NCBI RefSeq assembly: GCF_020169335.1
Contig: NZ_JAIEZN010000002.1
Span: 868,001 to 932,000, forward strand
Length of the DNA stretch: 64,000 nt
Direction of reading: 5' to 3'
Source: Devosia aquimaris
GTDB lineage: Bacteria; Pseudomonadota; Alphaproteobacteria; Rhizobiales; Devosiaceae
The translations under genes were made by a program, and so were the position numbers. The notes under the pieces are model-generated. The model made no database searches. It saw only the letters and a list, made by a program, of their open reading frames with translations, and was not told the DNA's origin. Positions 28,876 to 46,953 of the stretch are shown here, one piece after another. Positions within the stretch are counted from its first letter, which is position 1; every line of letters starts with the position of its first letter.

Positions 28876-28889
28876 CGTGAATGTTCACG
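28876..28889. promoter_or_regulatory. LacI-type operator, CGTGAATGTTCACG family, copy 1
   Basis: The 14-base near-palindrome has perfect 6-bp arms (CGTGAA/TTCACG) around TG. It overlaps a TATCGT -10-like element on the minus strand. It sits 67 bp from the second copy, so two repressor dimers could cooperate over the promoter of the GH95/ABC operon. Confidence 0.75.
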
Positions 28890-28942
28890 ATAGTCTCTAG
28901 ACCTGTCATCCAATGTCTTCCGCATCGGTCGCGCCCAAAGTC

Positions 28943-28981
28943 CGTGAATGTTCACGATAGCAGGCGCAACATTTCAGTCAA
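28943..28981 (-). promoter_or_regulatory. operon promoter with CGTGAATGTTCACG operator, copy 2
   Basis: On the minus strand TTGACT (28976-28981) and TATCGT (28954-28959) are separated by 16 bp. The 14-base operator at 28943-28956 covers the end of the -10 and the start region. A bound LacI-type repressor would block RNA polymerase. The adjacent lacI gene (29025-30017) is the likely source. Confidence 0.7.
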
Positions 28982-29024
28982 CAGCTTTAGTTCGCCTCCG
29001 TGACAAAGACCCTCAGCAGCGTGC

Positions 29025-30017
29025 TCAGGCTGACTCGCGCCACAGCGGCCGCGGTAGAATCTGGCGATTGATGCTCTCGATATCGCGGAAGCCGGCCTCG
29101 GCGATCTGCTCTGATATGGCAAAGATCTCCGAGACCAGCGTCTCGCGGTCGATCGAGATCGAACTCAGCGATGGCGCGGTGGCCTCACCCAGCGTCAGCC
29201 CGTCGATGCCCATGACGCGCAATTGCCTGGGCACGTCGAAGCCGGCAACCCGGGCGCCGTGCATGGCGCCAATCGCCATTATGTCATTGAAGGCAAAGAC
29301 CGCGCCGACATCCGGATGGGCCTGCAGCAGCCGGGCGATGGCGCGCTCGCCGCCGGCCAGACTCTCCTCATCGGCCACCACCACATTGCGCGAGTGCTCG
29401 GGCACGAATTCGGAGAAATAGCCGCAGCGCGGCGAGCGGTCCATAACATGGTCGGCGCCGCGATTGGTGGCGTCGATCATGCCGAAGTGCGTGACGCCCT
29501 TGGCGATCAGCGCCGTAATGGCGTCGTGCAGACCGCCCCTGAGGTCAATGTCGATGGCATGGACGCCCGGCAGGTTGCTCGTGCCCTCGATGCGGATCAC
29601 CGGCACGCCGCCCGACGCCTGCTTGAGTTCGGACGAGGGCAGGTCGAAATGGCCCACCACGACGTCGACATGTTCAGACAGTCGCTCCAGCGCCTCGCGC
29701 TCGCTGCTGCCCTCCATGGCATCGAACGCCACCTGCCAGTTGCGCGCCTTGGCCTGCATCAGCATGTCGGCCGCAAGATCGGTGAAATAGGGATTGCGGA
29801 ACGACGTCACCACATAGCCGATGGCGCGCGACTTGGTGCGCGCCGCGAAGTTGCGGGCAAAGCGGCTGGGCCGATAGCCCAGCTGCGCCGCCACCTCGAG
29901 CACGCGCTTTTTGGTCTCGGGGTTGATGTCGGCCTTGTCGTTGAGCGCACGGGTCACCGCGCCACGGGAGACTCCCGCGGCGCTGGCAACATCCATGATG
30001 GTGATCTTTGGCGACAC
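29025..30017 (-). CDS. LacI-family regulator 1
   Basis: 330-residue LacI/GalR regulator. The N-terminal helix-turn-helix is TIMDVASAAGVSRGAVTRALN, with recognition residues Arg, Gly and Arg at the LacI 17/18/22 positions. The hinge helix is FARNFAARTKS, followed by a periplasmic-binding-like sugar domain (YVVTSFRNPYFTDLAADM). It is flanked on both sides by genes whose promoters carry CGTGAATGTTCACG, making it the best candidate for that operator. It lies 38 bp after the ATPase gene and is probably co-transcribed, so it would be autoregulated. The effector is presumably a fucosylated sugar. Confidence 0.9.
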   Translation of the reverse strand: MSPKITIMDVASAAGVSRGAVTRALNDKADINPETKKRVLEVAAQLGYRPSRFARNFAARTKSRAIGYVVTSFRNPYFTDLAADMLMQAKARNWQVAFDAMEGSSEREALERLSEHVDVVVGHFDLPSSELKQASGGVPVIRIEGTSNLPGVHAIDIDLRGGLHDAITALIAKGVTHFGMIDATNRGADHVMDRSPRCGYFSEFVPEHSRNVVVADEESLAGGERAIARLLQAHPDVGAVFAFNDIMAIGAMHGARVAGFDVPRQLRVMGIDGLTLGEATAPSLSSISIDRETLVSEIFAISEQIAEAGFRDIESINRQILPRPLWRESA

Positions 30018-30055
30018 GGTGATCTCGGGCCCTTTTCCAGGGGGCGATGGACCGG

Positions 30056-31126
30056 TCAGTCGCGACCAGTCGGTCGCAGGCGCTTGCCTGTGGCGTCAAA
30101 ATAGATCGCCTTGGACAGATCGAGCGGAAAGCTGCAGGTTTCCCCGGGCTTGATCTCGACGTCGCGGCGGTCTTCCACAATGACCGGTTGTTCAGCCCCG
30201 AACTGTCCGTAGACATAGCGGGTACCCCCCAGATTCTCCAGAACTTCCACCAGAACAGGCAGATTGGTGTTCTGCGGGGCTGGAACGAAGTGCTCGGGCC
30301 TTATGCCCACGATGATCTCGGAGTTTTCCGTCGGCAGCGACGCCACCGGCCAGGCGACGTCCGGACCCAGGGTCACCATGCCGTCAGCATAGTGCGCCTT
30401 GAGAAAGTTCATGCGGGGCGAGCCGATGAAGCCGGCGACGAACTGTGTATCGGGATCTGCGTAGAGCTGGCTGGGGGTGCCGGTCTGCTCGATGCGGCCG
30501 GCGCGCATCACCACGATCTTGTCGGCCAGCGTCATGGCCTCTGTCTGGTCGTGCGTCACATAGATCATCGTTGCACCCAGCGTCTGGTGCAGCTTGGCGA
30601 TCTCCACGCGCATCGATACGCGCAGCTCGGCATCCAGGTTCGACAGTGGTTCGTCAAACAGGAACACATCCGGATCGCGCACGATGGCGCGCCCGATCGC
30701 GACGCGCTGGCGCTGGCCGCCCGACAGTTGTGCCGGCTTGCGCTTGAGCAGGCTGTCCAGCTGCAGGATCTCGGCAGCCTCGGCCACGCGACGGGTCGTG
30801 GTGGCCTTGTCGGTGCCCTGCATGCGCAGCGGAAAGCCGATGTTGTCTTCAACCGTCATATGCGGATAGAGCGCATAATTCTGGAACACCATGGCGATGC
30901 CACGCGCGACCGGGTCGGCGTCGGTCATGTCCGTGCCGCCGATGCGCACCGTGCCGTCGCTGACGTCTTCGAGCCCCGCAATCAGCCGCAGCAGCGTCGA
31001 TTTTCCGCAGCCCGAGGGGCCGACGAAAACGGTGAACGATCCCTCCTCGATTTCGAGGTTCAGCTCCTCAATCACCGCGAAATTGCCAAAAGACTTTGAC
31101 ACCCCGGCCAGTTCCACGCTTGCCAC
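30056..31126 (-). CDS. sugar ABC transporter ATPase, UgpC/MsmK type (system 1)
   Basis: 356 residues from GTG 31126, which has a GGGAGGAACTG ribosome site; the longer frame to 31255 runs into the promoter. Walker A is GPSGCGKST, the Q-loop [14 protein letters not shown], the signature [15 protein letters not shown], Walker [15 protein letters not shown], and the H-loop VTHDQTEAM. A C-terminal TOBE/OB regulatory region follows from about residue 235 ([10 protein letters not shown]). It energises the LplBC-like permeases, which have no ATPase in their own operon. The CGTGAATGTTCACG operator sits 23 bp before the start. Confidence 0.9.
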   Translation of the reverse strand: MASVELAGVSKSFGNFAVIEELNLEIEEGSFTVFVGPSGCGKSTLLRLIAGLEDVSDGTVRIGGTDMTDADPVARGIAMVFQNYALYPHMTVEDNIGFPLRMQGTDKATTTRRVAEAAEILQLDSLLKRKPAQLSGGQRQRVAIGRAIVRDPDVFLFDEPLSNLDAELRVSMRVEIAKLHQTLGATMIYVTHDQTEAMTLADKIVVMRAGRIEQTGTPSQLYADPDTQFVAGFIGSPRMNFLKAHYADGMVTLGPDVAWPVASLPTENSEIIVGIRPEHFVPAPQNTNLPVLVEVLENLGGTRYVYGQFGAEQPVIVEDRRDVEIKPGETCSFPLDLSKAIYFDATGKRLRPTGRD

Positions 31127-31148
31127 CAGTTCCTCCCACGGCATGCTT

Positions 31149-31188
31149 CGTGAATGTTCACGGTATTGATCGCCACAAGGGTCGTCAA
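31149..31188 (-). promoter_or_regulatory. ATPase/lacI-1 promoter with CGTGAATGTTCACG operator, copy 3
   Basis: On the minus strand TTGACG (31183-31188), a 17-bp spacer and TACCGT (31160-31165) form a good promoter. The 14-base operator lies at 31149-31162, overlapping the -10 and the start region. The arrangement repeats that at 28943. Confidence 0.75.
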
Positions 31189-31267
31189 GCAAGGACGCAG
31201 TGCCGGCTACCCCGACGTGGCGTCGGCAAACTTCGAAAAAGCCCGTTGCTTGCATCGCCTGGATAGC

Positions 31268-31300
31268 TTGTCAGGCGAGGGCGATATGATAACGTTTCAT
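31268..31300 (+). promoter_or_regulatory. GH29 gene promoter with TGATAACGTT operator, copy 1
   Basis: TTGTCA (31268-31273), a 16-bp spacer and TAACGT (31290-31295) form the promoter. TGATAACGTTTCAT (31287-31300) covers the -10. The same TTGTCA-16-TAACGT with TGATAACGTT recurs at 33962-33994. AACGTT in the centre is typical of LacI-family operators. Confidence 0.7.
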
Positions 31301-31412
31301 TCTATTTGCGTTTCGGCATGCCGGGCTCGCATGGGGATCTGATTGGTCCGTAGCGGGCTGGCGACCGGCGCCCAATTGCCCTGGTGCCGGTCCGGCACAA
31401 GCGGCCCCCACG

Positions 31413-33035: not shown

Positions 33036-33056
33036 GGCGCCGGCCCGGCCCGAGGG

Positions 33057-33968
33057 TCAGTCGTCGAGCCGGGCAATCATCCGCGCGGCATGCGCGCCAT
33101 AGTCGAAGGCCTGGCCAGTGCCATCGGTGGCACTGGCGCCAAGGCCTGCCATCACCAGGCCCCAGCTGGCCTCGAAGTAGCGGGCCACCCATTTCATCGC
33201 CGAGAGCCAGTCGTGGTCGCCGCTAGGGCGGCCCGCCTGGACCAGCATGGCGCGCTCCTCGTCTGGGTCGAGGCCGGCCGAAACGGCGATGCAGGCCAGA
33301 TCATAGACCCCGTCGCCGCACCCAGAGAACTCCCAGTCGACCAGCCAGAGCCGCTCGCCATCATCGAGCACATTGTTGGGCCAGAGGTCGTGGTGCGTCG
33401 GCCGTTGCGATGACTGTGCGCTCGCCTTTAGCCGCGTCAGCTTCTGGCGATGCCGCTCGGGCATCCCGGCGCGGCCCGCGGCCAAGGCGCTGGCCTCCAA
33501 TGCGGCAATGCGTTCGAAGATGCTGCGCGCGGGCCCTGGACCAGATGGCAGGTCCAGCTCGTGCAGCCGCCGCACCAGATCGATGACGGCGCGACGCCGC
33601 AGCGCGTCGGCAAATCCGTCCGCGGCCAGGGGGCGGGCACCGTTGATCCATTCGGTTACCAGCAACCCATCGGTTCCGGCATGAACAACCCGCGGTCCGA
33701 TACCCGCGACGCCGGCCAAGCTCGCAATCGCGCCCTCCTCAAGGGGGTCGACGCCAAGGTGGTTCCGGCCGCGCGCGCTGGCCAAACGCACGGCAAGGCG
33801 CTGGCCGTCCGCCGTCACCAACAGGCGGACATCATTGTTCAGGCTCTGCACCCCGCCGACGCGAAAGCAGTCAAACTGCCGGTGGCCAAGGACTTTTGAC
33901 ATCCTGGCCCGGACGTCGTCATCGAGGGGGGCCGGGGCATCGGATTCTGGCAGGTTTCCTATTGTCAT
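33057..33968 (-). CDS. aminoglycoside/choline-kinase-like phosphotransferase
   Basis: 303 residues from ATG 33968. Protein-kinase-like APH fold: catalytic loop THHDLWPNNVL (Brenner His-x-Asp-x4-Asn) near residue 190 and metal-binding Asp in LVDWEFSGCGDGVYDLA. The family phosphorylates small molecules such as choline, aminoglycosides, methylthioribose or sugars. In this place, between a fucosidase and a sugar-ABC operon, a sugar or glycan-linked alcohol is a reasonable guess, but nothing proves it. Its start codon overlaps the -35 of the divergent operon promoter, so both genes may be controlled together. Confidence 0.75.
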   Translation of the reverse strand: MTIGNLPESDAPAPLDDDVRARMSKVLGHRQFDCFRVGGVQSLNNDVRLLVTADGQRLAVRLASARGRNHLGVDPLEEGAIASLAGVAGIGPRVVHAGTDGLLVTEWINGARPLAADGFADALRRRAVIDLVRRLHELDLPSGPGPARSIFERIAALEASALAAGRAGMPERHRQKLTRLKASAQSSQRPTHHDLWPNNVLDDGERLWLVDWEFSGCGDGVYDLACIAVSAGLDPDEERAMLVQAGRPSGDHDWLSAMKWVARYFEASWGLVMAGLGASATDGTGQAFDYGAHAARMIARLDD

Positions 33969-33994
33969 TCTCAATCTAGATGATAACGTTACGA
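33962..33994 (+). promoter_or_regulatory. system-2 ABC operon promoter with TGATAACGTT operator, copy 2
   Basis: TTGTCA (33962-33967), a 16-bp spacer, TAACGT (33984-33989), and the operator TGATAACGTTACGA at 33981-33994. It has the same spacing and sequence as at 31268. The -35 lies over the start codon of the divergent phosphotransferase gene. Confidence 0.72.
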
Positions 33995-34047
33995 CATACT
34001 TGACGATGACGGCCGACAAGTGCCGGGTCAAGCAGGAGGAGAAAGCA

Positions 34048-35340
34048 ATGATCAAGTTCAAAGGCGTCCTTGGACGCCGTGCCTTGCTGTCCGGCATTGC
34101 CGCAACGGCCATGCTGGTTATGGGTGGAGCTGCCATCGCGCAGGACATCAGCGGCGAACTCGCCATCCTGCAGTGGCAGGGCGGCGTCGATGCCGAGATG
34201 TGGAAGAAGCTGGAAGCCGACTTCGTCGCCCAGCATCCCGGCGTGTCCGTGCGCGAACTGACCATCACCGCGCAGGGCGATGCCCGTGGCGGCATCCGCA
34301 CCGCCATTCTGGGCGGCGAGAAGGTCGATATCATCATCAATACCTGGCCGGCTTTCCGCAAGGAACTGGCTGACGCCGGTATCCTGCGTGGGCTTGACGA
34401 TCAGTGGGCCGGCCTCGGCCTGGAGTCCACGCTCAGCCAGTCCTGGCGTGACCTGGGCGTGAGCGACGGCGTCAGCTATGGCGTCCCCTATACCTACGGC
34501 GATCGCTCCGGCATCTGGTACAAGACCAGCCAGCTCAAGGACGCAGGCGTCGAAGTGCCCAAGACCTGGGAAGACTTCATTGCCGCCATCAAGACCCTGA
34601 AGGCCGCCGGCTACGACACGCCAATCCCCATGCCGGGCAAATACTGGGCGCACGGCGAATGGTTTGAATCGCTGCTGCTGCGCACCGGCGGCGTCGAGGC
34701 GGCTGCCAAGCTGGCCGCTCACGAAATCCCCTGGACCGACGAGGTGGTCAAGACCGCCCTGCGCAAATATGCCGAAATGCTCGAGGCTGGCTGCTGCGGT
34801 ACGCCCGAACAGATGTTCGCCGGCGACTGGGATCTGTCGGCTGACCAGATCTTCAAGGCCGATGCCGGCAACTTCCTGCTGCTGGGCATGTGGGTCAATG
34901 CCCGCGCCAAGGGTGACTATGGTCTGACTGAGGGCGTGGACTATTCCCTGTTCCAGTTCCCGGCGCTCGGTATGGGTCACGATGACACCTCCAGCGTTGA
35001 CGCCAAGGAACTGCTGGTGACGGCAAACGGGGAAAACCCCGAAGCAGCCGATGCCTTCCTGACCTATATCGTCTCGCCCGAGGCCACCAAGATCCTGGCC
35101 GAATATGGCTATGCCTCGCCCAGCTCCAATGCTGATACCTCCCTGCTCGGGCCGGTGCAGCAGCAGGCGACTGCAGCCGTGGCGGCCTCCAAGGTGCAGT
35201 TCGTTCTCGGCGATCTGCTGCCGGGCGACCTCGTGGACGAATACCGGGTCCAGCTGCAGAAATTCCTGCAGGATCCGTCCGACGCCAATATCGATGCTGT
35301 CACGGCAGCCATCGAAGCCAAGGCTGCGGAATCCTACTGA
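34048..35340 (+). CDS. sugar ABC transporter binding protein (system 2)
   Basis: 430-residue SBP_bac_1-type lipophilic-leader protein: RRALLSGIAATAMLVMGGAAIAQ is a signal peptide, and cleavage is expected after AIAQ. The mature lobe starts GELAILQWQGGVDAEMWKKL. VSYGVPYTYGDRSGIWYKTS lies around the ligand cleft. AGGAGGAG precedes ATG 34048, and the stop overlaps the next start (TGATG). It heads the operon SBP-permease-permease-GH151-like, so its ligand is probably the substrate of that enzyme. Confidence 0.9.
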   Translation: MIKFKGVLGRRALLSGIAATAMLVMGGAAIAQDISGELAILQWQGGVDAEMWKKLEADFVAQHPGVSVRELTITAQGDARGGIRTAILGGEKVDIIINTWPAFRKELADAGILRGLDDQWAGLGLESTLSQSWRDLGVSDGVSYGVPYTYGDRSGIWYKTSQLKDAGVEVPKTWEDFIAAIKTLKAAGYDTPIPMPGKYWAHGEWFESLLLRTGGVEAAAKLAAHEIPWTDEVVKTALRKYAEMLEAGCCGTPEQMFAGDWDLSADQIFKADAGNFLLLGMWVNARAKGDYGLTEGVDYSLFQFPALGMGHDDTSSVDAKELLVTANGENPEAADAFLTYIVSPEATKILAEYGYASPSSNADTSLLGPVQQQATAAVAASKVQFVLGDLLPGDLVDEYRVQLQKFLQDPSDANIDAVTAAIEAKAAESY

Positions 35341-36302
35341 TGAGCATGTCCGCTGCAGACGCAGCGGCGCGCTCGTCCCAAGTGTCCTCCCCCGTGGGCG
35401 GTGGCCGGCGCAAGCCGGTCGCCGTCCGCAGGAGGCGCCTCGGTGAGACGCCGGCTGCCTGGCTATTGATCATTCCAGTGCTGATCCTGTTCTCGATCAC
35501 GGTGATCTATCCGCTGGTCGAAACCATCCGCCTGAGCTTTTTCGACATCAAGGGTCTGGGCAAGCCGAAGTTCATCGGCACCGGCAACTATATCAAGCTC
35601 TTTACCGACCCGGCCTTCCGCAACACCTTGTGGACCACACTGGTCTTTACCCTGGGCACCACCACCATCACGGTGAGCCTGGGTTGGTTCCTGGCCATGT
35701 TGTGCTCGTTTGCACCCCAGCGCACGCTGCCCTTCCGCGTCATGATCTTTGCCGCCTTCGGCATTTCCGAAGCGGTGAGCGGCTATATGTGGATTTCCAT
35801 GCTGCGCCCCGACCAGGCGGGTCTGCTCAATTCGGTCATCGGCCTGTTCTCGCCCGGCTTTGCCCATCCCTGGCTGGGTGATCCCAATACCGCGCTATGG
35901 ATGATCATTGTTGCCGCCTCCTGGAGTGGCGTGGGCCTGCCGCTGATGCTGTGCTTTGCCGCCGTGCAGGCCATTCCCAAGACGGTGCTGGAAGCCGCCT
36001 ACATGGACGGGGCCAAGCCCTTTGCCATCATGCGCTTCATCATGGTGCCGCTCTCCATGCCCGGCGTGCGCGTGGCCATCTTCATCAATCTGCTCGGCGC
36101 CCTGCGGGCCTTTGACATCATCTATGTGCTCACCGGTGGCGGCCCTGTCCGCTCCACCGAGACCGTGGGCTACTTCATGTACCGGGAGTCCATGACCCAG
36201 TTCAAACTCGGCTATGGCGCCGCTGCCACGGTGATCCTGCTGGTTGCCGTCATGGTGATCTCCATTCCCGCCATCATCCAGCGCACGGCAGGTGCCAAAT
36301 GA
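35340..36302 (+). CDS. sugar ABC transporter permease, MalF type (system 2)
   Basis: 320 residues with a basic cytoplasmic N-terminus and six helices. EAA loop: TVLEAAYMDGAKPFAIMRFIMVPLSMP. The segment GALRAFDIIYVLTGGGP before the last helices is typical of UgpA/MsmF-type permeases. It overlaps the binding-protein stop by 1 base and the next permease by 4 bases, so the operon is tightly coupled. Confidence 0.92.
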   Translation: MSMSAADAAARSSQVSSPVGGGRRKPVAVRRRRLGETPAAWLLIIPVLILFSITVIYPLVETIRLSFFDIKGLGKPKFIGTGNYIKLFTDPAFRNTLWTTLVFTLGTTTITVSLGWFLAMLCSFAPQRTLPFRVMIFAAFGISEAVSGYMWISMLRPDQAGLLNSVIGLFSPGFAHPWLGDPNTALWMIIVAASWSGVGLPLMLCFAAVQAIPKTVLEAAYMDGAKPFAIMRFIMVPLSMPGVRVAIFINLLGALRAFDIIYVLTGGGPVRSTETVGYFMYRESMTQFKLGYGAAATVILLVAVMVISIPAIIQRTAGAK

Positions 36303-37120
36303 TCGGTCGCGTTCCCAACTGGATCGTCTGGGTTGTGGGCGTCATCGCCTGCATCTGGGTCATCCCCATCATCGGCATTGTCGTCACCTCGGTGCGCCCG
36401 CCTGCGGACGTCACCCTGGGCTGGTGGCGGCTGGACAATATCCGCTTCACGCTGGATGCCTGGATGCGTGTCTGGGATGAGTACCCCCTGGCCAACGCCT
36501 TCTGGACCACGCTCTGGATCACCCTGATCGGCACCGGCGCCACCATGCTGCTCACCCCGGCGGCGGCCTATGCCTTCCACTTTCTCAAGTTCCCGTTCCG
36601 CCGCACCATCCTGGTCATCATCATCAATGCCTTCGTGCTGCCGGTGCAGGTGGTGGTCATCCCGCTGTTCCAGCTCTGGCGCGACACCGGGCTGATCGAC
36701 AACATCCTGGCCGTGCTGATCCCCTATGTCGGCCTCAGCTTTGCCTGGTCGATCTTCCTGGTCAAAAACTTCATGGAGGATTTTCCCAAGGAGCTGATCG
36801 AGGCCGGCAAGATTGACGGCTGCGGGCCGCTTGCCACCTTTTGGTTCGTGGTGCTGCCCAATTCGCTCTCGGCCATTTTCGCAGTCGGCATCCTGCAGTT
36901 CCTCTGGTGCTGGAACAGCCTGCTGCTGCCAATGCTTTACCTGCGGACCACCATTCCGCTGCCGGTGCTGCTGACCCGCGTGTCGGGCACCTACGACCTC
37001 AACTGGGATCTTCGGAGCGTGGCGGCCATCGTCACCACCATCGTTCCCCTCTTTGTCTTCCTCATCTTCCAGCGACAGTTCGCCGCCGGGTCGCAGACCC
37101 GAACCGGCGCCAAGGAATAG
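36299..37120 (+). CDS. sugar ABC transporter permease, MalG type (system 2)
   Basis: 273-residue six-helix permease. The EAA loop is ELIEAGKIDGCGPLATFWFVVLPNS, and the C-terminus [11 protein letters not shown] is the usual end of MsmG/UgpE-type subunits. It pairs with the MalF-type protein encoded upstream. The next gene starts 4 bp after its stop. The ATPase of this system is not here but at 40309, beyond the enzyme and regulator genes. Confidence 0.92.
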   Translation: MIGRVPNWIVWVVGVIACIWVIPIIGIVVTSVRPPADVTLGWWRLDNIRFTLDAWMRVWDEYPLANAFWTTLWITLIGTGATMLLTPAAAYAFHFLKFPFRRTILVIIINAFVLPVQVVVIPLFQLWRDTGLIDNILAVLIPYVGLSFAWSIFLVKNFMEDFPKELIEAGKIDGCGPLATFWFVVLPNSLSAIFAVGILQFLWCWNSLLLPMLYLRTTIPLPVLLTRVSGTYDLNWDLRSVAAIVTTIVPLFVFLIFQRQFAAGSQTRTGAKE

Positions 37121-37124
37121 ATCT

Positions 37125-39143
37125 ATGCCCGCTACCAACAAGCCGATCCGCTACCGGCAGATCCATCTCGACTTCCACACCTCCGAGCACATCCCCGGCA
37201 TCGGCGCGCAATTCGATCCCGATCAGTTCGTCGGCACGCTCAAGGCGGCCAATGTCGACAGCATCACTATCTTCGCCAAATGCCATCATGGCTGGTCCTA
37301 CTATCCCACCAAGGTGGGCGCGCCGCACCCCAATCTGGCGCGGCCCGACCTGATGGGCGACATGATCAAGGCGCTGTCGGCTGCCGATATCGAGGCCCCG
37401 ATCTACATCTCGGTGCAGTGGGACGAGCGCAATGCCCGCCTGCATCCGGAGTGGCGCGTGCGCGCAGCCAGCAAGAGCCGTTTCGACCCCGCCCAGTTGC
37501 AGGCCGGCTGGCACACGCTCTGCCTCAACCACAAGGCCTATCGCGACGAGCTGCTCGAACATGCCCGCGAAGTGGTGCGCAACTATGATACGCCCGGCCT
37601 GTTCTTCGACATCGTGCTGGCCACCGACTGTGTGTGCCAGGAGTGCCTGGACTCCATGGCCTCCCATGGCCTCGACCCCACCAAGGCCGAGGATCGCCTG
37701 ACCAATGACGAATGGGTCAACGAGGTGTTCCGCACCGAGATGACCGCGGCGCTGCATGCCGAATTCCCGGGCCTTCGCATCTTCTACAATTGCGGTCACA
37801 TCCATAAACAGGGCCGCAAGCGTTTCGCGCCTTATACCCATCTCGAACTCGAAAGCCTGCCCACCGGCGGCTGGGGCTATGACCATTTCCCGTCCAGCGC
37901 CCGCTATGCGGCCACGCTCGGCCTCGATTTCCTTGCCCACACCGGCAAGTTCCACCTCTCCTGGGGCGAGTTCGGCGGCTTCAAGCATCCCGATGCGCTC
38001 GAATATGAGGCGGCCCAGATGGCGGCGCTGGGCTCGAAATGCCTGGTGGGTGACCAGCTCCATCCCAATGGCGCCATCAACCCCGACACCTATGCATCCA
38101 TCGCGCCGGCCTATGCCCGCATTGCCAAGCTCGAGCCCTTCCTCGATGGCGCGCGCCAGCATTCGCAGGTGGCGATCCTGTCGTCGGAATATTTCCACCA
38201 CGCCGGCGACCGCAACAGCGCTGCCGACAATGGCGCGGCCCAGATGCTGCTCGAGCTCAAGGTGCCTTATGACGTCATCGACGGCACCTCCGACTTCAGC
38301 CCCTATGAGGTGATCATCCTCCCTGACGACATTCCGGCCGATGCGGCCACAGCTGCCCAGCTCAAGGCCTTCGTCGCCAAGGGGGGCAGCCTGATCCTGT
38401 CCGGCAATTCCATGCTGGGCAGCGATGGCCGCTTTGCGCTGGACACCGGGGTGCGCAGCACGGGTCCGGTCAGCTTCACCCCCAGCTATATCGGCGCAGC
38501 CAAGGGGCTCGACCCGGCCATGACGGCTTCACCCTTCGTGGTCTATGGCACGGCCCAGCAGATCGTGGCCGAGGGTGCCGAGGTGCTGGCAGACGTCGTG
38601 CCACCCTATTTCAACCGGACCTATGCGCATTTCTCGTCGCACGCGCATGCGCCGGACGACACCGATGCAGCTCCGCTCGGCGCCGCGGTCACCCTGTCCG
38701 GACGGATTGGCTACATCGCCTATCCGCTCTTTACGATCTACCACAATGTCGGCCAGCCGCTCTATCGTCAGGTCTTCCGCGGCCTGCTCAACCGCCTGCT
38801 GCCCAAGCCGATGCTGAGCACGGACCTGCCCTCGTCGGGTCGTGCCACCATGACCCATCAGGCCGAGCGCAACCGCCATATCGTGCATCTGCTCTATGGC
38901 CCGCCACAGGTGCGCGGAAAGTCCGTGCCGCAGGGCGAAAGCACGCGCGTGATGGAAATGATCGAGGATATTCCGGCAATTGGTCCGGTCAGTGCCTCGG
39001 TGCGCCTACCCTCGCCGCCAAAGCGGGCGTATGAAGCGGTTTCCGGCAAGGACCTTGAGGTTCGTGATCTTGGGGACGGAACCTATGGTGTGACGCTCGA
39101 TCGCCTGCGCATCCACGCAGCGATTGTCTTTGAACACGCCTAG
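37125..39143 (+). CDS. GH151/GHL6-like glycoside hydrolase, probable alpha-L-fucosidase
   Basis: 672-residue protein without signal peptide. The N-terminal barrel is of the hypothetical glycosyl hydrolase 6 type: HLDFHTSEHIPGIG, SITIFAKCHHGWSYYPTKVG and TPGLFFDIVLATDC. A Rossmann-like beta-galactosidase trimerisation domain follows from about residue 360 (VAILSSEYFHHAGDRN, ILPDDIPADAATAAQLK) and then a beta domain. This architecture is known from GH151 alpha-L-fucosidases and related clan GH-A enzymes. Neighbouring GH29 and GH95 enzymes support fucose release, but GHL6 is broad and another specificity is possible. Start chosen 4 bp after the permease stop. Catalytic residues not assigned. Confidence 0.72.
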   Translation: MPATNKPIRYRQIHLDFHTSEHIPGIGAQFDPDQFVGTLKAANVDSITIFAKCHHGWSYYPTKVGAPHPNLARPDLMGDMIKALSAADIEAPIYISVQWDERNARLHPEWRVRAASKSRFDPAQLQAGWHTLCLNHKAYRDELLEHAREVVRNYDTPGLFFDIVLATDCVCQECLDSMASHGLDPTKAEDRLTNDEWVNEVFRTEMTAALHAEFPGLRIFYNCGHIHKQGRKRFAPYTHLELESLPTGGWGYDHFPSSARYAATLGLDFLAHTGKFHLSWGEFGGFKHPDALEYEAAQMAALGSKCLVGDQLHPNGAINPDTYASIAPAYARIAKLEPFLDGARQHSQVAILSSEYFHHAGDRNSAADNGAAQMLLELKVPYDVIDGTSDFSPYEVIILPDDIPADAATAAQLKAFVAKGGSLILSGNSMLGSDGRFALDTGVRSTGPVSFTPSYIGAAKGLDPAMTASPFVVYGTAQQIVAEGAEVLADVVPPYFNRTYAHFSSHAHAPDDTDAAPLGAAVTLSGRIGYIAYPLFTIYHNVGQPLYRQVFRGLLNRLLPKPMLSTDLPSSGRATMTHQAERNRHIVHLLYGPPQVRGKSVPQGESTRVMEMIEDIPAIGPVSASVRLPSPPKRAYEAVSGKDLEVRDLGDGTYGVTLDRLRIHAAIVFEHA

Positions 39144-39252
39144 CATGACCGTTCTCCCACGCACGGTGCCCTTGTGGGGCCATGCTGGCTTGACACAGCA
39201 GCGGCGCGCCGGCCTTGGCCGGCCGCCGGCCAGGGCAATTGGGAAGACAACG

Positions 39253-40290
39253 GTGCACAGCAGGAACGCGGACGGTCGCTCACGCAAGCAGGCAACAATC
39301 GTGGATGTGGCGGAGGCTGCCGGTGTCGCCATCGGTACCGTCTCGCGCTATCTCAACGGCCTGCCCGTGCGCGGTTCCAACCGTGCCCCGATCGAAAGGG
39401 CCATCAGCGAGCTGGGCTATCGCCGCAACATGGTGGCCGTTTCGATGAAACGGCAGACCACCCATATCGTTGGCTTCATGGTGCCGGCGCTGAGCGAGTT
39501 CCACTCGGGCCTGCTCGACCAGTTGACCCGCCGCATGCGCCGCACAGGTCGCGCCGTGCTCTGCTATTCGCACGACATGGAGGCCCGCTCCATCGAGGAA
39601 GGTCTGGAGTTCTTCGCCTCGCACCGTGTCGATGCGGTGGTGATGGACGGCGTCATCCAGGCCCAGCCCGCCCTGGAGCGCTATATCGAGGATGGCCTCA
39701 CCGTCGTGCTCTATGACAATGACGTGCCCGGCCTGTCGGCGGACCGCGTCTTCTCCAACAATCGCAAAGCCAGCGAGCGGATGGTCAACCATCTGATCGA
39801 CCTCGGTCACACCCGCATCGCCACCATTCACGGTAGTGAGGACAATTCCGCCGGTCAGGAGCGCCTGCAGGGCTATACTGACGCCATGGAGCGGCACGGC
39901 CTGGCCATGCCCGACGCCTATGTCACCTCCGGCTACTGGAGCGAAGAAGGTGGTCACGCCGCCATTCGCGACCTCATGGCGCTCGCCGAGCCGCCCACGG
40001 CGGTGTTCAGCGCCAACTACAACATGACGATCGGCGCCCTGCGCTGGCTGCGCGAACACGACCTGGACGTGCCCAATGACCTGTCCCTGGTCAGCTTCGA
40101 CGATGTGCCGGCCTTCGCCGTGCACCGCACCGGCATTACTGCCGTTGGACAGTCTATCGACCAGCTGGCGGACTCTATCGCAACTGTATTGCTGGAGCGC
40201 CTGGAGGCCGGACCACAGTCCGGACGGCGCACCCTGCGCATCGACGCCAACATCATACTCAGGGGCTCGGCCCGAAGCCCCAAGAAATAA
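39253..40290 (+). CDS. LacI-family regulator 2
   Basis: 345 residues from GTG 39253 with GGGAAG before it; ATG 39145 would add 36 Arg/Pro-rich residues unlike the family. The helix-turn-helix is TIVDVAEAAGVAIGTVSRYLN, with recognition residues Ile, Gly and Arg. The sugar domain contains VGFMVPALSEFHSG and SLVSFDDVPAF. It lies at the end of the system-2 operon and just before its ATPase. It is the best candidate for the TGATAACGTT operators at 31287 and 33981, judged by proximity and the AACGTT centre. Confidence 0.88.
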   Translation: MHSRNADGRSRKQATIVDVAEAAGVAIGTVSRYLNGLPVRGSNRAPIERAISELGYRRNMVAVSMKRQTTHIVGFMVPALSEFHSGLLDQLTRRMRRTGRAVLCYSHDMEARSIEEGLEFFASHRVDAVVMDGVIQAQPALERYIEDGLTVVLYDNDVPGLSADRVFSNNRKASERMVNHLIDLGHTRIATIHGSEDNSAGQERLQGYTDAMERHGLAMPDAYVTSGYWSEEGGHAAIRDLMALAEPPTAVFSANYNMTIGALRWLREHDLDVPNDLSLVSFDDVPAFAVHRTGITAVGQSIDQLADSIATVLLERLEAGPQSGRRTLRIDANIILRGSARSPKK

Positions 40291-40308
40291 TGTCCGGGAG
40301 GAGAGAAC

Positions 40309-41370
40309 ATGGCCACCGTTACGCTGAACAACGTGAGCAAGTCCTATGGCAGCCTTGAGGTCATCGAGAACCTGAACCTGTCTGTCGAGGACGGCAGCTT
40401 CACCGTTTTTGTTGGTCCTTCGGGCTGTGGCAAATCCACCCTGTTGCGCATGATTGCCGGGCTGGAGCCCATCACCAAGGGCGATCTCGTCATTGACGGT
40501 CGCCGCGTCAACGAGGCCGACCCCATCGAGCGCGGCGTCGCCATGGTGTTCCAGAACTATGCGCTCTATCCGCACATGACGGTGGAGCAGAACATCGGCT
40601 TTTCCCTGCGCATGGCCGGGCTCGAAAAGGCCGATATCGATGCCCGCGTGGCCGTCGCCGCCCAGACGCTGCAGATCGAACCGCTGCTCAAGCGCAAGCC
40701 GGCCCAGCTTTCGGGCGGCCAGCGCCAGCGTGTCGCCATCGGCCGTGCCATTGTCCGCGATCCCGAGGTGTTCCTGTTCGACGAGCCGCTGAGCAATCTC
40801 GATGCCGAACTGCGCGTCTCCATGCGCGTCGAAATCGCCAAGCTGCACAACAAGCTGGGCTCCACCATGATCTATGTGACCCATGACCAGACCGAGGCCA
40901 TGACCCTGGCCGACAAGATCGTGGTGATGCGGGATGGCAAGATCGAACAGGCAGGCTCGCCCGACGAGCTTTACGAGAACCCGGACAATCTGTTCGTGGC
41001 CGGCTTCATCGGCTCGCCGCGCATGAATTTCCTGCGCGCCAGCCTCGAGCCCACTGGTCCGCGCCTCGCCGCTGGCCCCAGCCTCGCCATGGCCGGTCTG
41101 GCCGGATCGGGCGATGTGCTGGTCGGCGTACGGCCCGAGCACTTTCTGCTTGGCGGCGGCGACGCCGTGCTCGCCGTCAAGGTCGATGTGGTCGAGAACC
41201 TGGGCGGCACGCGCTATCTCTATGGCTCCGCCGCCTCGGGCGAGAGCCTGGTCGTCGAAGTGCGGGACCGTCCGGGCATCAAGGCCGGCGACACCATCCA
41301 TGTCGGCGTCGATCCGTCCCGCTCCATGATCTTCCGCGAAACCGGCGAACGGCTGCGCCAGGGACACTGA
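40309..41370 (+). CDS. sugar ABC transporter ATPase, UgpC/MsmK type (system 2)
   Basis: 353-residue importer ATPase: Walker [11 protein letters not shown]-loop [14 protein letters not shown], signature [15 protein letters not shown], Walker [16 protein letters not shown]-loop VTHDQTEAM, then the TOBE region. It is very similar in layout to the ATPase at 30056 and probably a duplicate. It would power the system-2 permeases 3-5 kb upstream. Starts 18 bp after lacI-2 with a GGAGGAGAG site, and the GH95 gene begins 5 bp after its stop. Confidence 0.92.
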   Translation: MATVTLNNVSKSYGSLEVIENLNLSVEDGSFTVFVGPSGCGKSTLLRMIAGLEPITKGDLVIDGRRVNEADPIERGVAMVFQNYALYPHMTVEQNIGFSLRMAGLEKADIDARVAVAAQTLQIEPLLKRKPAQLSGGQRQRVAIGRAIVRDPEVFLFDEPLSNLDAELRVSMRVEIAKLHNKLGSTMIYVTHDQTEAMTLADKIVVMRDGKIEQAGSPDELYENPDNLFVAGFIGSPRMNFLRASLEPTGPRLAAGPSLAMAGLAGSGDVLVGVRPEHFLLGGGDAVLAVKVDVVENLGGTRYLYGSAASGESLVVEVRDRPGIKAGDTIHVGVDPSRSMIFRETGERLRQGH

Positions 41371-41375
41371 ACTGC

Positions 41376-43625: not shown

Positions 43626-43627
43626 GC

Positions 43628-44656
43628 CTAGCCGGGCTGCGCTGGCTCGTGCAGCGAGCCACGCAGCACCACCGGCATGGTAATGAGCTCTTCCTGGGCA
43701 GTCTTGCCGTCGAGCAGCATCTGCACCGCACGCCGCCCCATGGCCTCGTGCGGCAGGCTGATGGTGGTCAGGCCCGGACGGAGATAGGAGGCCAGCTCGT
43801 CATTGTCGAACGAGACCAGCGAGACATCGTCGGGGATGCGCAGCCCCGCCTCGCCCAGCGCCTGATAGGCGCCGAAGGCGAGCCGGTCATTCAGGCACAG
43901 CATGGCCTTTGGCCGCCGCCGGCGCAGCAGCGCCTTGGTGAGGTCATAGCCATGATTGGGTTCCCAGTTCCAGCAACTGAGCTCGGCGGCAAAGTCCAGC
44001 CCGTGCTCGGCCATGGCGTCGCGGATGCCGGCAAGCCGCCGCGAGATCGAATGCGACCGAAAGAGCCCCTTCTCATCGGCCGGATTGTGTCCGAGCAGGA
44101 CAATGTCCTCTGTGACCCCAGTCTGCGCCAGCAGGCGCACCGCCGTGCGGCCGCCCTCATATTCATCGGGCAGTACGGCCGCAGGAAAGCGCGCGCTGGT
44201 GCCGTTGAGCATGACCACGGGCACATTGCCCGAGAGCGGCGGCACAAAGACCTCGCGCGCCCGCATGGCGGCAAAGATCAGCCCGTCGACCTGGCGGTCC
44301 AGCGCCGCCTCGACCGCCTGCAGCTCGCGCGCCGGCTCGCCCCCGGTTTCGAGCAGCAGCATCACGTGCTTGGCCTCTTCCGCGGCGGCCAGGGCGCCGC
44401 GGATCAACCCGCTGGCAAAGCGGGTGGTGGCGACATAGTCCGAAATGAAGGCAATCGAGCGCGACCGATCGGTGCGCAAAGCGCGGGCTGCGACATTGGG
44501 GCGATAACCCAGGCTTGTGGCGGCCGCGTGCACCTTGGCATGGGCTTCCGCCGAAAGGCGCGTATCATGCTTGCCAGTCAGGATCATCGAGGCTGCCGTA
44601 GGCGACAGGCCGGCCAGGCGTGCCACGTCCGCCAGTGTTACGCGCTTCTTCTGCAA
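43628..44656 (-). CDS. LacI-family regulator 3
   Basis: 342 residues from TTG 44656, with GAGGGG upstream. The helix-turn-helix is VTLADVARLAGLSPTAASMILTG. Recognition positions read Pro, Thr and Met, so the usual Arg is missing, and an unusual operator would be expected. Hinge helix ARALRTD is kept and the sugar domain reads AFISDYVATTRFASGLIRG. Divergent from the GH32/GH43-like gene, whose promoter region holds GCTAAATGGTTTTAGC. The same motif lies before the system-3 binding protein. Confidence 0.88.
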   Translation of the reverse strand: MQKKRVTLADVARLAGLSPTAASMILTGKHDTRLSAEAHAKVHAAATSLGYRPNVAARALRTDRSRSIAFISDYVATTRFASGLIRGALAAAEEAKHVMLLLETGGEPARELQAVEAALDRQVDGLIFAAMRAREVFVPPLSGNVPVVMLNGTSARFPAAVLPDEYEGGRTAVRLLAQTGVTEDIVLLGHNPADEKGLFRSHSISRRLAGIRDAMAEHGLDFAAELSCWNWEPNHGYDLTKALLRRRRPKAMLCLNDRLAFGAYQALGEAGLRIPDDVSLVSFDNDELASYLRPGLTTISLPHEAMGRRAVQMLLDGKTAQEELITMPVVLRGSLHEPAQPG

Positions 44657-44719
44657 GCGTTGTTGCCCCTCATCCCCAAGCCACCCTTGTGCCGCACTGG
44701 ATAGCTACGCTGCCGATGC

Positions 44720-44763
44720 TTGACAACCTTTGCGCGACACGGCAATTGCTAAATGGTTTTAGC
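44720..44763 (+). promoter_or_regulatory. GCTAAA-N4-TTTAGC operator, copy 1, with upstream TTGACA
   Basis: GCTAAATGGTTTTAGC at 44748-44763 has 6-bp arms, just before the ribosome site of the propeller hydrolase. A TTGACA -35 is at 44720-44725, but the matching -10 is not clear. The operator is shared with 46938. Confidence 0.7.
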
Positions 44764-44774
44764 AGGGGATGACG

Positions 44775-45734
44775 ATGGGATTCAATCTGCCCGATCACTG
44801 GGTGTGGGATTTCTGGCTGGCCGACGATGGCGACCAGTATCACCTGTTCTATCTGCACGCGCCCAAGTCGCTCGGCAATCCCGACCTGCGCCATCGCAAT
44901 GCCCGCATCGGCCACGCGACCTCGTCTGACCTGCGGAGCTGGAGCAACCACGGCCAGGCCTTCGACGCCGGCGCGCCCGGCAGCTTTGACGGCAGCGCCA
45001 CCTGGACCGGCAGCGTGGTCCGCGGCCCCGACGGGCAGTGGCGCATGTTCTATACCGGCTCGCGCTTCCTCTATCCCGACCAGCTCGCCAATATCGAGAC
45101 GGTGGGTCTGGCCACCTCTCCGGACCTGTTCACCTGGACCAAACAGCCGGGCCCCATCGTCACCGCCGATGCCAGTCTCTATGAAACCCTGGGCACCTCG
45201 AGCTGGCCGGAAGAATGCTGGCGCGACCCCTGGGTGTTCTTCCAGCCAACAGACCAGCAATGGCACATGCTGATGACGGCGCGCGCCAAGACCGGCACCG
45301 AGCCCGATCGCGGCGTGCTGGGCCATGTGACCTCGCCCGACCTCAAGACCTGGACGCAGCAGCCCGCGCTGAGCGAGCCGGGCGCCGGCTTTGCCCATCT
45401 TGAAGTGTTCCAGCTCGTCGAGATCGACGGGCGCAACCAGCTCATCTTCTGCTGCGATACGGCCAAGCTGGTCGGCCCGCGCGCCGGCCAGACCGGCGGC
45501 GTCTGGTCGCTGCCGGTGGGCCACATGCCCGGCGCGGTCGATTTCAGCAAGGCACGCCTGCTGGTAGATGAATCTCTTTACGCTGGGCGTATCGCCATTG
45601 ATCGCGCCGGTACGCCCTGGTTGCTCGCCTTTCACAACCAGCGCCCCGGCGAAGCGTTCCAGGGCGGCATCAGCGACCCCATTGCCCTGGTCACCGGCGC
45701 CGACGGCTATCTGATTGCGGAGCGCGGCCTATGA
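44775..45734 (+). CDS. five-bladed beta-propeller glycosidase, GH32/GH43-like
   Basis: 319 residues from ATG 44775, chosen because AGGGG lies 6 bases before it (ATG 44769 would be too close). No signal peptide. Propeller motifs: VWDFWLADDGDQYHLFY with candidate nucleophile Asp12, WRDPWVFF with the transition-state Asp151, and HLEVFQL with candidate acid Glu210. The RDP triad is typical of GH32/GH68 and also seen in GH43-like enzymes. It probably hydrolyses a fructoside or related sugar; family not settled. Its stop overlaps the next gene (ATGA). Confidence 0.75.
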   Translation: MGFNLPDHWVWDFWLADDGDQYHLFYLHAPKSLGNPDLRHRNARIGHATSSDLRSWSNHGQAFDAGAPGSFDGSATWTGSVVRGPDGQWRMFYTGSRFLYPDQLANIETVGLATSPDLFTWTKQPGPIVTADASLYETLGTSSWPEECWRDPWVFFQPTDQQWHMLMTARAKTGTEPDRGVLGHVTSPDLKTWTQQPALSEPGAGFAHLEVFQLVEIDGRNQLIFCCDTAKLVGPRAGQTGGVWSLPVGHMPGAVDFSKARLLVDESLYAGRIAIDRAGTPWLLAFHNQRPGEAFQGGISDPIALVTGADGYLIAERGL

Positions 45735-46888
45735 GCATTGTCGTCAACGGCATCGTTGCCCCCGGTTTCGAGCCGGTCGCCCGGGCCTTCGAGCAGGCTT
45801 TTGACGGTCGCCCCGCCATGGGCGCGGCCCTGCATGTGCGTCAGCACGGCGAGACCATCGTCAATCTCTGGGCCGGCGTCGCCGATGCGCGCGACGACCG
45901 CGCCTGGACCGAGCGCACGCCTTCGGTGATTTTTTCCTGCACCAAGGGGCTGGTCTCCATCCTGGCCGCGCGGCTGGTCGAGGAGGGACGCCTCGACTAC
46001 GCCGCGCCGGTGGCGCGCTACTGGCCCGAATTCGCCGTCGCCGGCAAGGACCGGGTGACGGTCGGCCAGGCGCTGGCGCATCAGGCGGGCCTGTCGGCGA
46101 CACGCGCCGACCTGAGCGAGGACGACATCGTCGACTGGGACCGCGTCGTCGCCATTCTGGCCGCGCAGGAACCGCTATGGCCCCTGGGCACAGGCTACGC
46201 CTACCACGCCATCACCCATGGCTGGGTGGCTGGCGAAATCATCCGCCGTGTCACCGGACAGTCCGTGGGAACCTACTTCCGCGAACTGATCACGGCGCCA
46301 TTGGGCGTGGACGCCTGGATCGGCCTGCCCGAGGCCAAGGCGGACAGCTGCGCCCATCTCGAAGTCAGCCCGCCGCTGATCCAGCTCTGGGCCGATGAGG
46401 CCGCCAAGCCGGCGCCCAACTGGCCCTACAAGGCCATGACGCTGGGCAGCGCCTTGCCCGCAGACCTTGTGACCGACGAGGGTGGCTTCAACAGCCAGCG
46501 CATCCGGGCGGCCGAGATCCCCGGCGCTGGTGGCGTCGCTTCGGCGCGGGCGCTGGCGACCATCTGGTCGGCGACTGTGGCCCCCACCCAGGGCGTCCGC
46601 CTGCTGGGCGATGACGTGATTGCCAAGGCAACGCAGACCCAGAGCCAGGGCGCCCCGGTGTTTGGCGGCGAGCCGCCATTTTCGCGCTGGGGCTTTGGCT
46701 TCCAGCTTGATTCCGAAGCGCGGCGCTATCTCGGCGAGGGCTGCTTCGGACATGACGGCGCAGGCGGGCAGGTCGGCTTTGCCGATCCCCAGCGCCGGAT
46801 CGGTTTCGGCTTTGTCACCAACTGGATGATGGGGCCGGAAGACACGCGGGCAACGCAGATTATCGACGCGCTGCGCCCGCTGGTCTAG
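45731..46888 (+). CDS. serine hydrolase, beta-lactamase/esterase (EstB) fold
   Basis: 385-residue class-C-like serine hydrolase without signal peptide. The nucleophile motif Ser-x-x-Lys is SCTKG (Ser69, Lys72), and the Tyr motif is near residue 158 (GYAYHAIT). C-terminal HDGAGGQVGFADP corresponds to the third active-site strand. Such proteins act as esterases, transacylases or D-peptidases more often than as lactamases. Translational coupling to the propeller glycosidase suggests it removes an acyl group from the same imported sugar. This is inferred from context only. Confidence 0.82.
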   Translation: MSIVVNGIVAPGFEPVARAFEQAFDGRPAMGAALHVRQHGETIVNLWAGVADARDDRAWTERTPSVIFSCTKGLVSILAARLVEEGRLDYAAPVARYWPEFAVAGKDRVTVGQALAHQAGLSATRADLSEDDIVDWDRVVAILAAQEPLWPLGTGYAYHAITHGWVAGEIIRRVTGQSVGTYFRELITAPLGVDAWIGLPEAKADSCAHLEVSPPLIQLWADEAAKPAPNWPYKAMTLGSALPADLVTDEGGFNSQRIRAAEIPGAGGVASARALATIWSATVAPTQGVRLLGDDVIAKATQTQSQGAPVFGGEPPFSRWGFGFQLDSEARRYLGEGCFGHDGAGGQVGFADPQRRIGFGFVTNWMMGPEDTRATQIIDALRPLV

Positions 46889-46914
46889 TCACCGCGCGGG
46901 GACAAAGGGCTCTA

Positions 46915-46953
46915 TTGACAGAGCCCGGTGTCCATGCGCTAAATCCATTTAGC
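46915..46953 (+). promoter_or_regulatory. system-3 promoter with GCTAAA-N4-TTTAGC operator, copy 2
   Basis: TTGACA (46915-46920), a 17-bp spacer, then GCTAAATCCATTTAGC (46938-46953), whose first half falls on the -10 position. Perfect 7-bp arms (GCTAAAT/ATTTAGC) around CC. It would be blocked by LacI regulator 3. Confidence 0.75.

What the first reader, a model, noticed from the sequence alone, without database searches (positions are those of the whole stretch)
28876..46953. Three LacI regulators with three distinct operator families, each tied to its own module
CGTGAATGTTCACG occurs three times around lacI-1 (28876, 28943, 31149). TGATAACGTT occurs twice (31287, 33981), both times in the same TTGTCA-16-TAACGT promoter. 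GCTAAA-N4-TTTAGC occurs twice around lacI-3 (44748, 46938). Nearly all overlap a -10 element. The three recognition helices also differ (Arg-Gly, Ile-Gly, Pro-Thr-Met). The region thus looks like insulated switches for different sugars.
Basis: partly seen in the sequence, partly recalled or inferred. Interest (0 to 1): 0.7.

Follow-up and report, generated by a model that had tools for sequence, protein, structure and literature searches.

The report
Three sugar repressors with own operators
A Devosia bacterium keeps three neighbouring sugar-uptake gene sets, each apparently switched by its own LacI-type repressor through its own DNA site; this is a well-supported but ordinary arrangement, and two of the three sets probably deal with related sugars.

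Summary
All seven sites are where stated, and in the own genome the exact motifs occur nowhere else. Each motif travels with its own LacI: a pair of op3 sites is in 31 of 34 LacI-3 genomes and 0 of 102 others; op2 is in 30 of 36 LacI-2 genomes and 4 of 100 others; op1 lies beside all four LacI-1 orthologues, with one mismatch in G042. Matrices made from relatives give each window site 24.6-34.2 bits for its own motif and negative scores for the other two.

The reading is partly right: three local LacI regulons, probably insulated at the DNA level. 'Different sugars' fits LacI-3 (GH32 fructosidase) but not LacI-1 versus LacI-2: both control GH95 fucosidases, and GH95 types change places between the two modules in relatives. 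GH29, beside module 1, carries the LacI-2 site. In LacI-3 the quoted Pro and Thr positions changed at least four times each while the operator arms stayed fixed. No binding or inducer was tested. New members of a known kind.

The parts
22851..25196 (-). GH95b, alpha-L-fucosidase family, last gene of module 1
   Evidence: Pfam Glyco_hydro_95_cat 396 bits; best PDB match 2rdy
25268..26851 (-). SBP1, extracellular sugar-binding protein of module 1 (N-terminal part of the gene not included; no Pfam family at E<=0.001)
   Evidence: open frame, 66-67% identical to the gene in the same place of L084 and L086; no Pfam hit, so the role is by position
26947..27891 (-). ABC permease P1a
   Evidence: BPD_transp_1 21.7 bits, below the cut-off of 26.4; 82-86% identical in L084/L086
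27885..28859 (-). ABC permease P1b
   Evidence: BPD_transp_1 48.1 bits
28876..28889 (.). op1 site, proximal, before P1b
28943..28956 (.). op1 site, distal, before P1b
   Evidence: pair kept in L084, L086, L087 and, with one mismatch each, L085
29025..30017 (-). LacI-1 regulator
   Evidence: PF00356 49.7 bits; helix SRGAVTR; 5 of 136 family genomes
30056..31144 (-). ATP1, ABC ATPase, probably in one operon with lacI-1 (start uncertain)
   Evidence: ABC_tran 121 bits
31149..31162 (.). op1 site before ATP1-lacI-1
   Evidence: exact site in front of ATP1 also in L084, L086, L087
31284..31298 (+). op2 site before GH29
   Evidence: same place in L088 and L092
31413..33035 (+). GH29, alpha-L-fucosidase family; LacI-2 regulon member
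   Evidence: Alpha_L_fucos 269 bits; nearest PDB chains 7snk and 7ljj, the latter named exo-alpha-L-galactosidase
33057..33899 (-). APH/choline-kinase-like phosphotransferase between GH29 and the module 2 promoter (start uncertain); not found in any of the 64 fetched loci
   Evidence: APH 52.7 bits; absent from the maps
33978..33992 (+). op2 site before SBP2
34048..35340 (+). SBP2, extracellular sugar-binding protein, first gene of the module 2 operon
   Evidence: SBP_bac_1 80.5 bits
35340..37120 (+). permeases P2a (35340-36302) and P2b (36299-37120)
   Evidence: open frames and conserved order
37131..39143 (+). GHL6/GH29-related glycosyl hydrolase with GH42 trimerisation-like domain (start uncertain)
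   Evidence: GHL6 109.6 bits
39259..40290 (+). LacI-2 regulator (start uncertain), inside its own operon
   Evidence: PF00356 39 bits, Peripla_BP_3 114 bits; 36 of 136 family genomes
40309..41370 (+). ATP2, ABC ATPase
   Evidence: ABC_tran 121.6 bits
41376..43625 (+). GH95, alpha-L-fucosidase family, module 2
   Evidence: Glyco_hydro_95_cat 536 bits; best PDB match 7kmq, 852 bits, the xyloglucan fucosidase XacAfc95 (PMC8245568)
43628..44656 (-). LacI-3 regulator, divergent from GH32
   Evidence: PF00356 34.8 bits, Peripla_BP_3 109 bits; 34 of 136 family genomes
44748..44763 (.). op3 site in the lacI-3/GH32 divergent gap, next to the GH32 ribosome site
44775..45734 (+). GH32-like fructosidase, single propeller domain (an ATG at 44769 is also possible; relatives favour 44775)
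   Evidence: Glyco_hydro_32N 67 bits; model pLDDT 91 and GH32/GH68 fold matches
45731..46888 (+). beta-lactamase-fold serine hydrolase, module 3
   Evidence: PF00144 228 bits
46938..46953 (.). op3 site before SBP3
46997..48298 (+). SBP3, extracellular sugar-binding protein (GTG start inferred)
   Evidence: SBP_bac_1 69.6 bits
48494..51350 (+). permeases P3a (48494-49429), P3b (49405-50250) and ATPase ATP3 (about 50277-51350)

Best explanation
Three local LacI-family repressors sit beside three ABC-importer/glycosidase modules, and each binds its own palindrome at the promoters of its own module, blocking RNA polymerase until a sugar from that module binds the repressor. LacI-1 (op1, CGTGAA-N2-TTCACG) controls ATP1-lacI-1 and P1b-P1a-SBP1-GH95b. 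LacI-2 (op2, AGWTGA-TAACGTT-TCAACT and relatives) controls GH29 and SBP2-P2a-P2b-GHL6-lacI-2-ATP2-GH95. LacI-3 (op3, GCTAAA-N4-TTTAGC) controls GH32-serine hydrolase and SBP3-P3a-P3b-ATP3, and probably its own divergent gene. Shown by sequence: sites, conservation, pairing with the regulator, no cross-match. Inferred: binding, repression, induction. Also inferred: modules 1 and 2 use related L-fucose (or L-galactose) bearing oligosaccharides, such as xyloglucan fragments, and module 3 a fructoside.
For: Family DBD and ligand domains in all three. Motifs confined to these sites in the own genome. op3 exact at both places in 29 of 30 relatives' loci, the 30th with one exact and one 1-mismatch site. 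op2 within 400 bp upstream of a module gene in 25 of 33 relatives' LacI-2 loci plus the window. op1 exact three times in each of G053, G054, G056 and twice with one mismatch in G042. Genome-level pairing: op3 pair 31 of 34 against 0 of 102; op2 30 of 36 against 4 of 100; op1 with centre TG/CA/CG 4 of 5 against 1 of 131 (Fisher tests). Matrices from relatives: own scores 24.6-34.2 bits, cross scores -3.4 or lower, no further site in the window. Promoter geometry TTGNNA-16-TAACGT (op2) and TTGAC-to-op3 spacing kept in most relatives. GH95 nearest to a xyloglucan fucosidase; GH32 fold.
Against: No binding, transcription or inducer data. As single matches the op1 and op3 patterns are no commoner family-wide than their backwards controls (op1: 30 sites in 18 genomes against 30 in 27; op3: 47 genomes against 47), so the case rests on place and clustering, not on counts. 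LacI-1 has only four relatives. The right half of op2 before SBP2 is degenerate in the window and its nearest relative. Eight of 34 LacI-2 loci, all of them relatives, showed no op2 in the fetched DNA: three end at a contig end and in four the site lies on the same contig just beyond the stretch fetched; the eighth (L116) has no module. op1, op2 and op3 were assigned to regulators by neighbourhood.
Confidence: 0.87

Rival explanations
1. Same three regulators and sites, but LacI-1 and LacI-2 answer to the same or nearly the same inducer (a fucosyl oligosaccharide), so that modules 1 and 2 are two arms of one response and not switches for different sugars.
For: Both modules hold GH95 enzymes. 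In G053 and G056 the GH95 beside SBP1 of the LacI-1 module is 69-70% identical to the module 2 GH95, while in six LacI-2 loci (L109, L111, L112, L114, L117, L119) the GH95 is of the GH95b type. Modules 1 and 2 are neighbours in two of five LacI-1 genomes, in different order. In L104 an op2 site stands before a module-1-type transporter, though that junction may be an assembly fault.
Against: The transporters and binding proteins of the two modules are of different kinds (SBP1 no Pfam family, SBP2 SBP_bac_1), which suggests different oligosaccharides; the operators do not overlap.
Confidence: 0.5
2. The palindromes are bound by other regulators (a global regulator or one of the other LacI proteins of the genome), and their neighbourhood to lacI-1/2/3 is incidental.
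For: The genome has 25 LacI-type DNA-binding domains, and one of the others (L214) shares the I-G..R helix of LacI-2.
Against: Presence of the sites follows presence of the neighbouring regulator over 136 genomes; nowhere else in the own genome; L214's own surroundings (3.1 kb) hold no AACGTT site.
Confidence: 0.05
3. Chance repeats or promoter boxes read as operators.
For: With mismatches allowed, counts in the window are near chance; op1 and op3 single-match counts equal the backwards controls family-wide; all seven sites touch promoter-like hexamers.
Against: Two op3 sites at the same two gaps in 30 of 30 relatives' loci, down to 68% regulator identity; conserved op1 and op2 sites beside orthologues; promoter boxes alone would not give palindromic arms of six bases.
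Confidence: 0.02

Closest known systems
Local LacI-family sugar regulons of RegPrecise (Ravcheev et al. 2014, PMC4052901; abstract, section 9 and passages seen)
   Same: Palindromic operators upstream of neighbouring sugar genes, autoregulation, tandem sites; nearly 90% of studied LacI-TFs are such local regulators.
   Different: op2 is mostly an odd palindrome (22 of 33 pattern matches have the 7-nt centre), a kind found for 4% of regulators there; none of 62 op3 sites has a CG centre, against CG in 1173 of 1303 there; the GH32 op3 site lies closer to the start codon than the usual 30-140 bp.
LacI recognition code AA-15/AA-16 to NT-5/NT-4 (Camas et al. 2010, PMC2978694; abstract and passages seen)
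   Same: LacI-2 belongs to the TVSR subgroup for which the code was stated.
   Different: LacI-1 has AVTR and LacI-3 AASM; in LacI-3 both code positions changed at least four times each with operator arms constant.
Xanthomonas xyloglucan locus with GH95 XacAfc95 (PMC8245568, passages seen)
   Same: GH95 of module 2 is closest to this enzyme among solved structures.
   Different: No GH74, GH31, GH35 or TonB transporter was seen in the module; uptake is by ABC importers; a GH2 is present in the LacI-1 module of G053 and G056 only as far as looked.
GH32/GH68 fructosidases and LacI-type sucrose or fructoside regulators such as ScrR and BfrR (names from PMC4052901 passages)
   Same: Fructosidase-family gene beside a LacI regulator and a sugar importer.
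   Different: Short single-domain GH32-like protein with a serine hydrolase; the effector is unknown; NCBIfam names no equivalog for LacI-3 above cut-off.

Membership tests
LacI-family transcription regulator | N-terminal LacI helix-turn-helix domain (PF00356) above cut-off | tested here: met
   49.7, 39 and 34.8 bits against a cut-off of 27
LacI-family transcription regulator | periplasmic-binding-protein-like effector domain | tested here: met
   Peripla_BP_3 53.4, 114.2, 109.4 bits, cut-off 26.5
Local LacI regulon | conserved palindromic operator at promoters of neighbouring sugar genes | tested here: met
Local LacI regulon | regulator binds the operator and a sugar releases it | not testable with these tools
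   needs gel shift and inducer assay
Canonical even LacI operator with CG centre | even palindrome with central CG | tested here: not met
   op3: even, but no CG in 62 sites; op2: mostly odd; op1: even, centre TG in the window, CG in the ATP1 site of three relatives
GH95 alpha-L-fucosidase | GH95 catalytic and flanking domains | tested here: met
   module 2; GH95b; activity not tested
GH32/GH68 fructosidase (clan GH-J) | five-bladed propeller related to GH32/GH68 | tested here: met
   Pfam 67 bits; the 50 listed fold matches are GH32/GH68 by title, out of 762 with E<=10
GH32/GH68 fructosidase (clan GH-J) | catalytic Asp, Asp of RDP, Glu | tested here: met
   D12, R150-D151-P152 and E210 invariant in 15 of 15 aligned sequences; their catalytic role is recalled from the families, not tested

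The most novel reading that the evidence does not exclude
LacI-3 and its orthologues read their operator by a mode outside the published LacI code: with Met instead of Arg at AA-20 and AA instead of VS before it, positions AA-15 and AA-16 no longer set the operator, so they drift (P/T/S/R and T/S/A, at least four changes each on the tree) while both arms GCTAAA/TTTAGC stay fixed in 61 of 62 sites and the centre is never CG. This would be a natural case in which the recognition-helix residues usually used to predict specificity are silent.
Probability: 0.35. Interest if true: 0.5.

Novelty: new member of a known kind. Interest (0 to 1): 0.3.

Why it matters
It gives three well-footprinted regulator-operator pairs, two of them with non-canonical operators, in one 22-kb stretch of a genus for which my searches found no described LacI operator. 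They are good test pieces for LacI orthogonality and for the limits of the LacI recognition code, and they assign fucosidase and fructosidase genes of Devosia to regulons. For biology at large it is ordinary.

Tried and rejected
Chance repeats: rejected by conservation in place, though plain counts would not have rejected it. One regulator for all three motifs: rejected at sequence level by the cross-scores and by separate presence and absence of the three regulators. GH29 as part of module 1: rejected, it carries op2 here and in L088 and L092. Helix residues 17/18 as the cause of specificity in LacI-3: not supported. Correlation of LacI-2 helix changes with operator changes: only L118 (Gly to Ser) has a changed site, one case, not enough. 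NCBIfam gave no equivalog above cut-off for any LacI. Search of held papers for these operators found nothing on them (listings).

Own slips: the first op2 genome pattern had a 10-base spacer in place of 12, so it served only as an unplanned control with three 3-mismatch hits; it was repeated correctly. The helix extraction found 12 of 25 LacI proteins and was redone for all 25. SBP1 and SBP2 queries, and SBP2, were out of frame; one search repeats the maps with the right frames, and identities of SBP1/SBP2 should be taken from there. The row for L119 is garbled. The genome tallies for op2 and op3 were collated by hand from the tables and recounted once. The op2 matrix includes one likely chance match (L091) and the near-identical strain G049 (L088), so its two window scores are not fully independent. 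The tree has 11 of 28 inner branches well supported.
Full report
Check of the observation. All seven sites are present as described. In the own genome (3,810,411 bases, 3 contigs; window = G000:C2:868001-932000) CGTGAANNTTCACG occurs 3 times and GCTAAANNNNTTTAGC twice, nowhere but in the window, controls 0. TTGTCA-N12-ATGATAACGTT occurs twice exactly, both in the window; eight more places have 2-3 mismatches.

Taxon. The relatives that hold LacI-3 are named Devosia species in genome contigs; contig lengths equate G049 with Devosia sp. FKR38 and G123 with Pelagibacterium limicola. So the window is from the genus Devosia or very near it (inference).

Anatomy. Module 1 (minus strand): ATP1-lacI-1 with op1 at 31149; P1b-P1a-SBP1-GH95b with op1 at 28876 and 28943. 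Module 2 (plus): GH29 with op2 at 31287; SBP2-P2a-P2b-GHL6-lacI-2-ATP2-GH95 with op2 at 33981. Module 3: lacI-3 (minus) divergent from GH32-serine hydrolase (plus) with op3 at 44748; SBP3-P3a-P3b-ATP3 with op3 at 46938. The GH32 op3 site ends 11 bases before the ATG at 44775, next to AGGGG. By my reading the GH32 -35 (TTGACAA) overlaps, on the other strand, a -35-like TTGTCAA of lacI-3.

Conservation. LacI-3 has orthologues at E<=1e-50 in 34 of 136 family genomes (own included), LacI-2 in 36, LacI-1 in 5. In 30 relatives' module 3 loci op3 is exact at both the LacI-3/GH32 gap and before SBP3 in 29; the 30th (L147) has one exact and one 1-mismatch site. Of 34 LacI-3 genomes 31 have a pair of exact op3 sites; the three others are G035 (partial LacI-3 match, one unrelated-looking site), G096 (one exact, one 1-mismatch) and G106 (LacI-3 at a contig end). 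None of the other 102 genomes has a pair; G032 has two sites on different contigs. Counted as single matches, op3 is in 47 of 136 genomes and the backwards control also in 47, so the count alone says nothing; the pairing and place do.

For op2, AGWTGATAACGTT is in 30 of 36 LacI-2 genomes and 4 of 100 others; the backwards control hits 9 of 136 (Fisher p 6e-20). In the fetched loci 26 of 34 (window included) have an op2-like site within 400 bp upstream of a module gene; of the eight without, L084, L106, L107 and L108 have the site on the same contig just outside the fetched stretch, L100, L109 and L115 end at contig ends, and L116 has no module. The promoter frame TTGNNA-16-TAACGT recurs in most of them. 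Of 33 pattern matches (one, in L091, probably chance) 22 have arms spaced by 7 nt (odd palindrome), 4 by 8 nt (even; clean in L089 and L090) and 7 neither; both spacings thus occur within one orthologue group.

For op1, all four LacI-1 relatives have sites: three exact in G053, G054 and G056, two with one mismatch in G042. Family-wide the pattern has 30 sites in 18 genomes against 30 in 27 for the control, so again place matters: 12 of the 30 are beside LacI-1, and outside LacI-1 genomes a centre of TG, CA or CG occurs once (G027).

Specificity. Matrices from relatives' sites (9 distinct op1, 31 op2, 60 op3) score the window sites op1 27.9-29.5, op2 24.6 and 31.2, op3 32.4 and 34.2 bits; the highest score in 30 first-order resamplings of the window was 20.3, 15.8 and 9.8; every cross score is -3.4 or lower; no other window site stands out. 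The own genome has 25 LacI domains. By my reading the triads R-G..R (LacI-1) and P-T..M (LacI-3) are unique among them, I-G..R (LacI-2) is shared by L214.

Helix drift. In LacI-3 and 30 orthologues positions 17 and 18 read TT 17, SA 4, TA 3, PT 2, ST 2, TS 2, RT 1, with at least four changes at each position on the tree, while 61 of 62 op3 sites have both arms intact and none has a CG centre. Camas et al. (PMC2978694; abstract and passages) limited their two-residue code to the TVSR subgroup with Arg at AA-20; LacI-3 has AASM. Small residues at AA-15/16 may simply make no contact, which would be a dull version of the same fact.

Which sugars. GH95 of module 2 is closest in the PDB to 7kmq, the xyloglucan alpha-1,2-fucosidase XacAfc95 (PMC8245568, passages); GH95b is closest to 2rdy; GH29 is closest to 7snk and 7ljj, the latter an exo-alpha-L-galactosidase. 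In G053 and G056 the LacI-1 module has a GH2 between the op1 pair and P1b and a module-2-type GH95 beside SBP1, and in six LacI-2 loci the GH95 is of the GH95b type. The two modules thus trade enzymes, which speaks for related fucosyl (or L-galactosyl) substrates. The GH32-like protein has GH32/GH68 fold matches only among the 50 listed (model pLDDT 91.3) and invariant D12, RDP and E210, which speaks for a fructoside.

Known or new. Ravcheev et al. 2014 (PMC4052901; abstract, section 9 and passages) describe this kind of local regulon for over 1300 LacI proteins; odd palindromes in 4% and non-CG even centres in a small minority. The three regulons here are new members with two less usual operators. 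I found no paper on LacI operators of Devosia in the held library by the searches (listings only).

Noticed in passing
L104:4146-4530 (genome G020, 210 contigs): An op2 site is followed by the first part of an SBP2-like gene that runs into the end of a GH2-like frame and then the module-1-type transporter P1b-P1a-SBP1, putting that transporter under op2; a real recombination or an assembly fault.
   Followed up: partly
window 33057-33899: An APH/choline-kinase-like gene lies between GH29 and the op2-SBP2 promoter; in L088 and L092 GH29 and SBP2 stand in tandem with short gaps and no such gene was found.
   Followed up: partly
window 33981-34010 and most LacI-2 loci: A further TTGA half-site (ACTTGA or AGTTGA) follows op2 about 20 bp after the first half-site in most relatives; possibly a second contact or a -35 of another promoter.
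   Followed up: no
G013, G015, G030, G035, G065, G071: The identical palindrome GCTAAATTTGTTTAGC (one strand or the other) occurs once each in these genomes, away from LacI-3 modules; probably another conserved element.
   Followed up: no
window 45731-46888: A beta-lactamase-fold serine hydrolase sits between GH32 and SBP3 in 28 of 30 relatives' module 3 loci (missing in L146 and L147); its role in fructoside use is unexplained.
   Followed up: no
L084, L086: The LacI-1 module of G056 and G053 has an extra GH2 gene between the op1 pair and P1b that the window lacks; G054 has a gap of the same size.
   Followed up: partly
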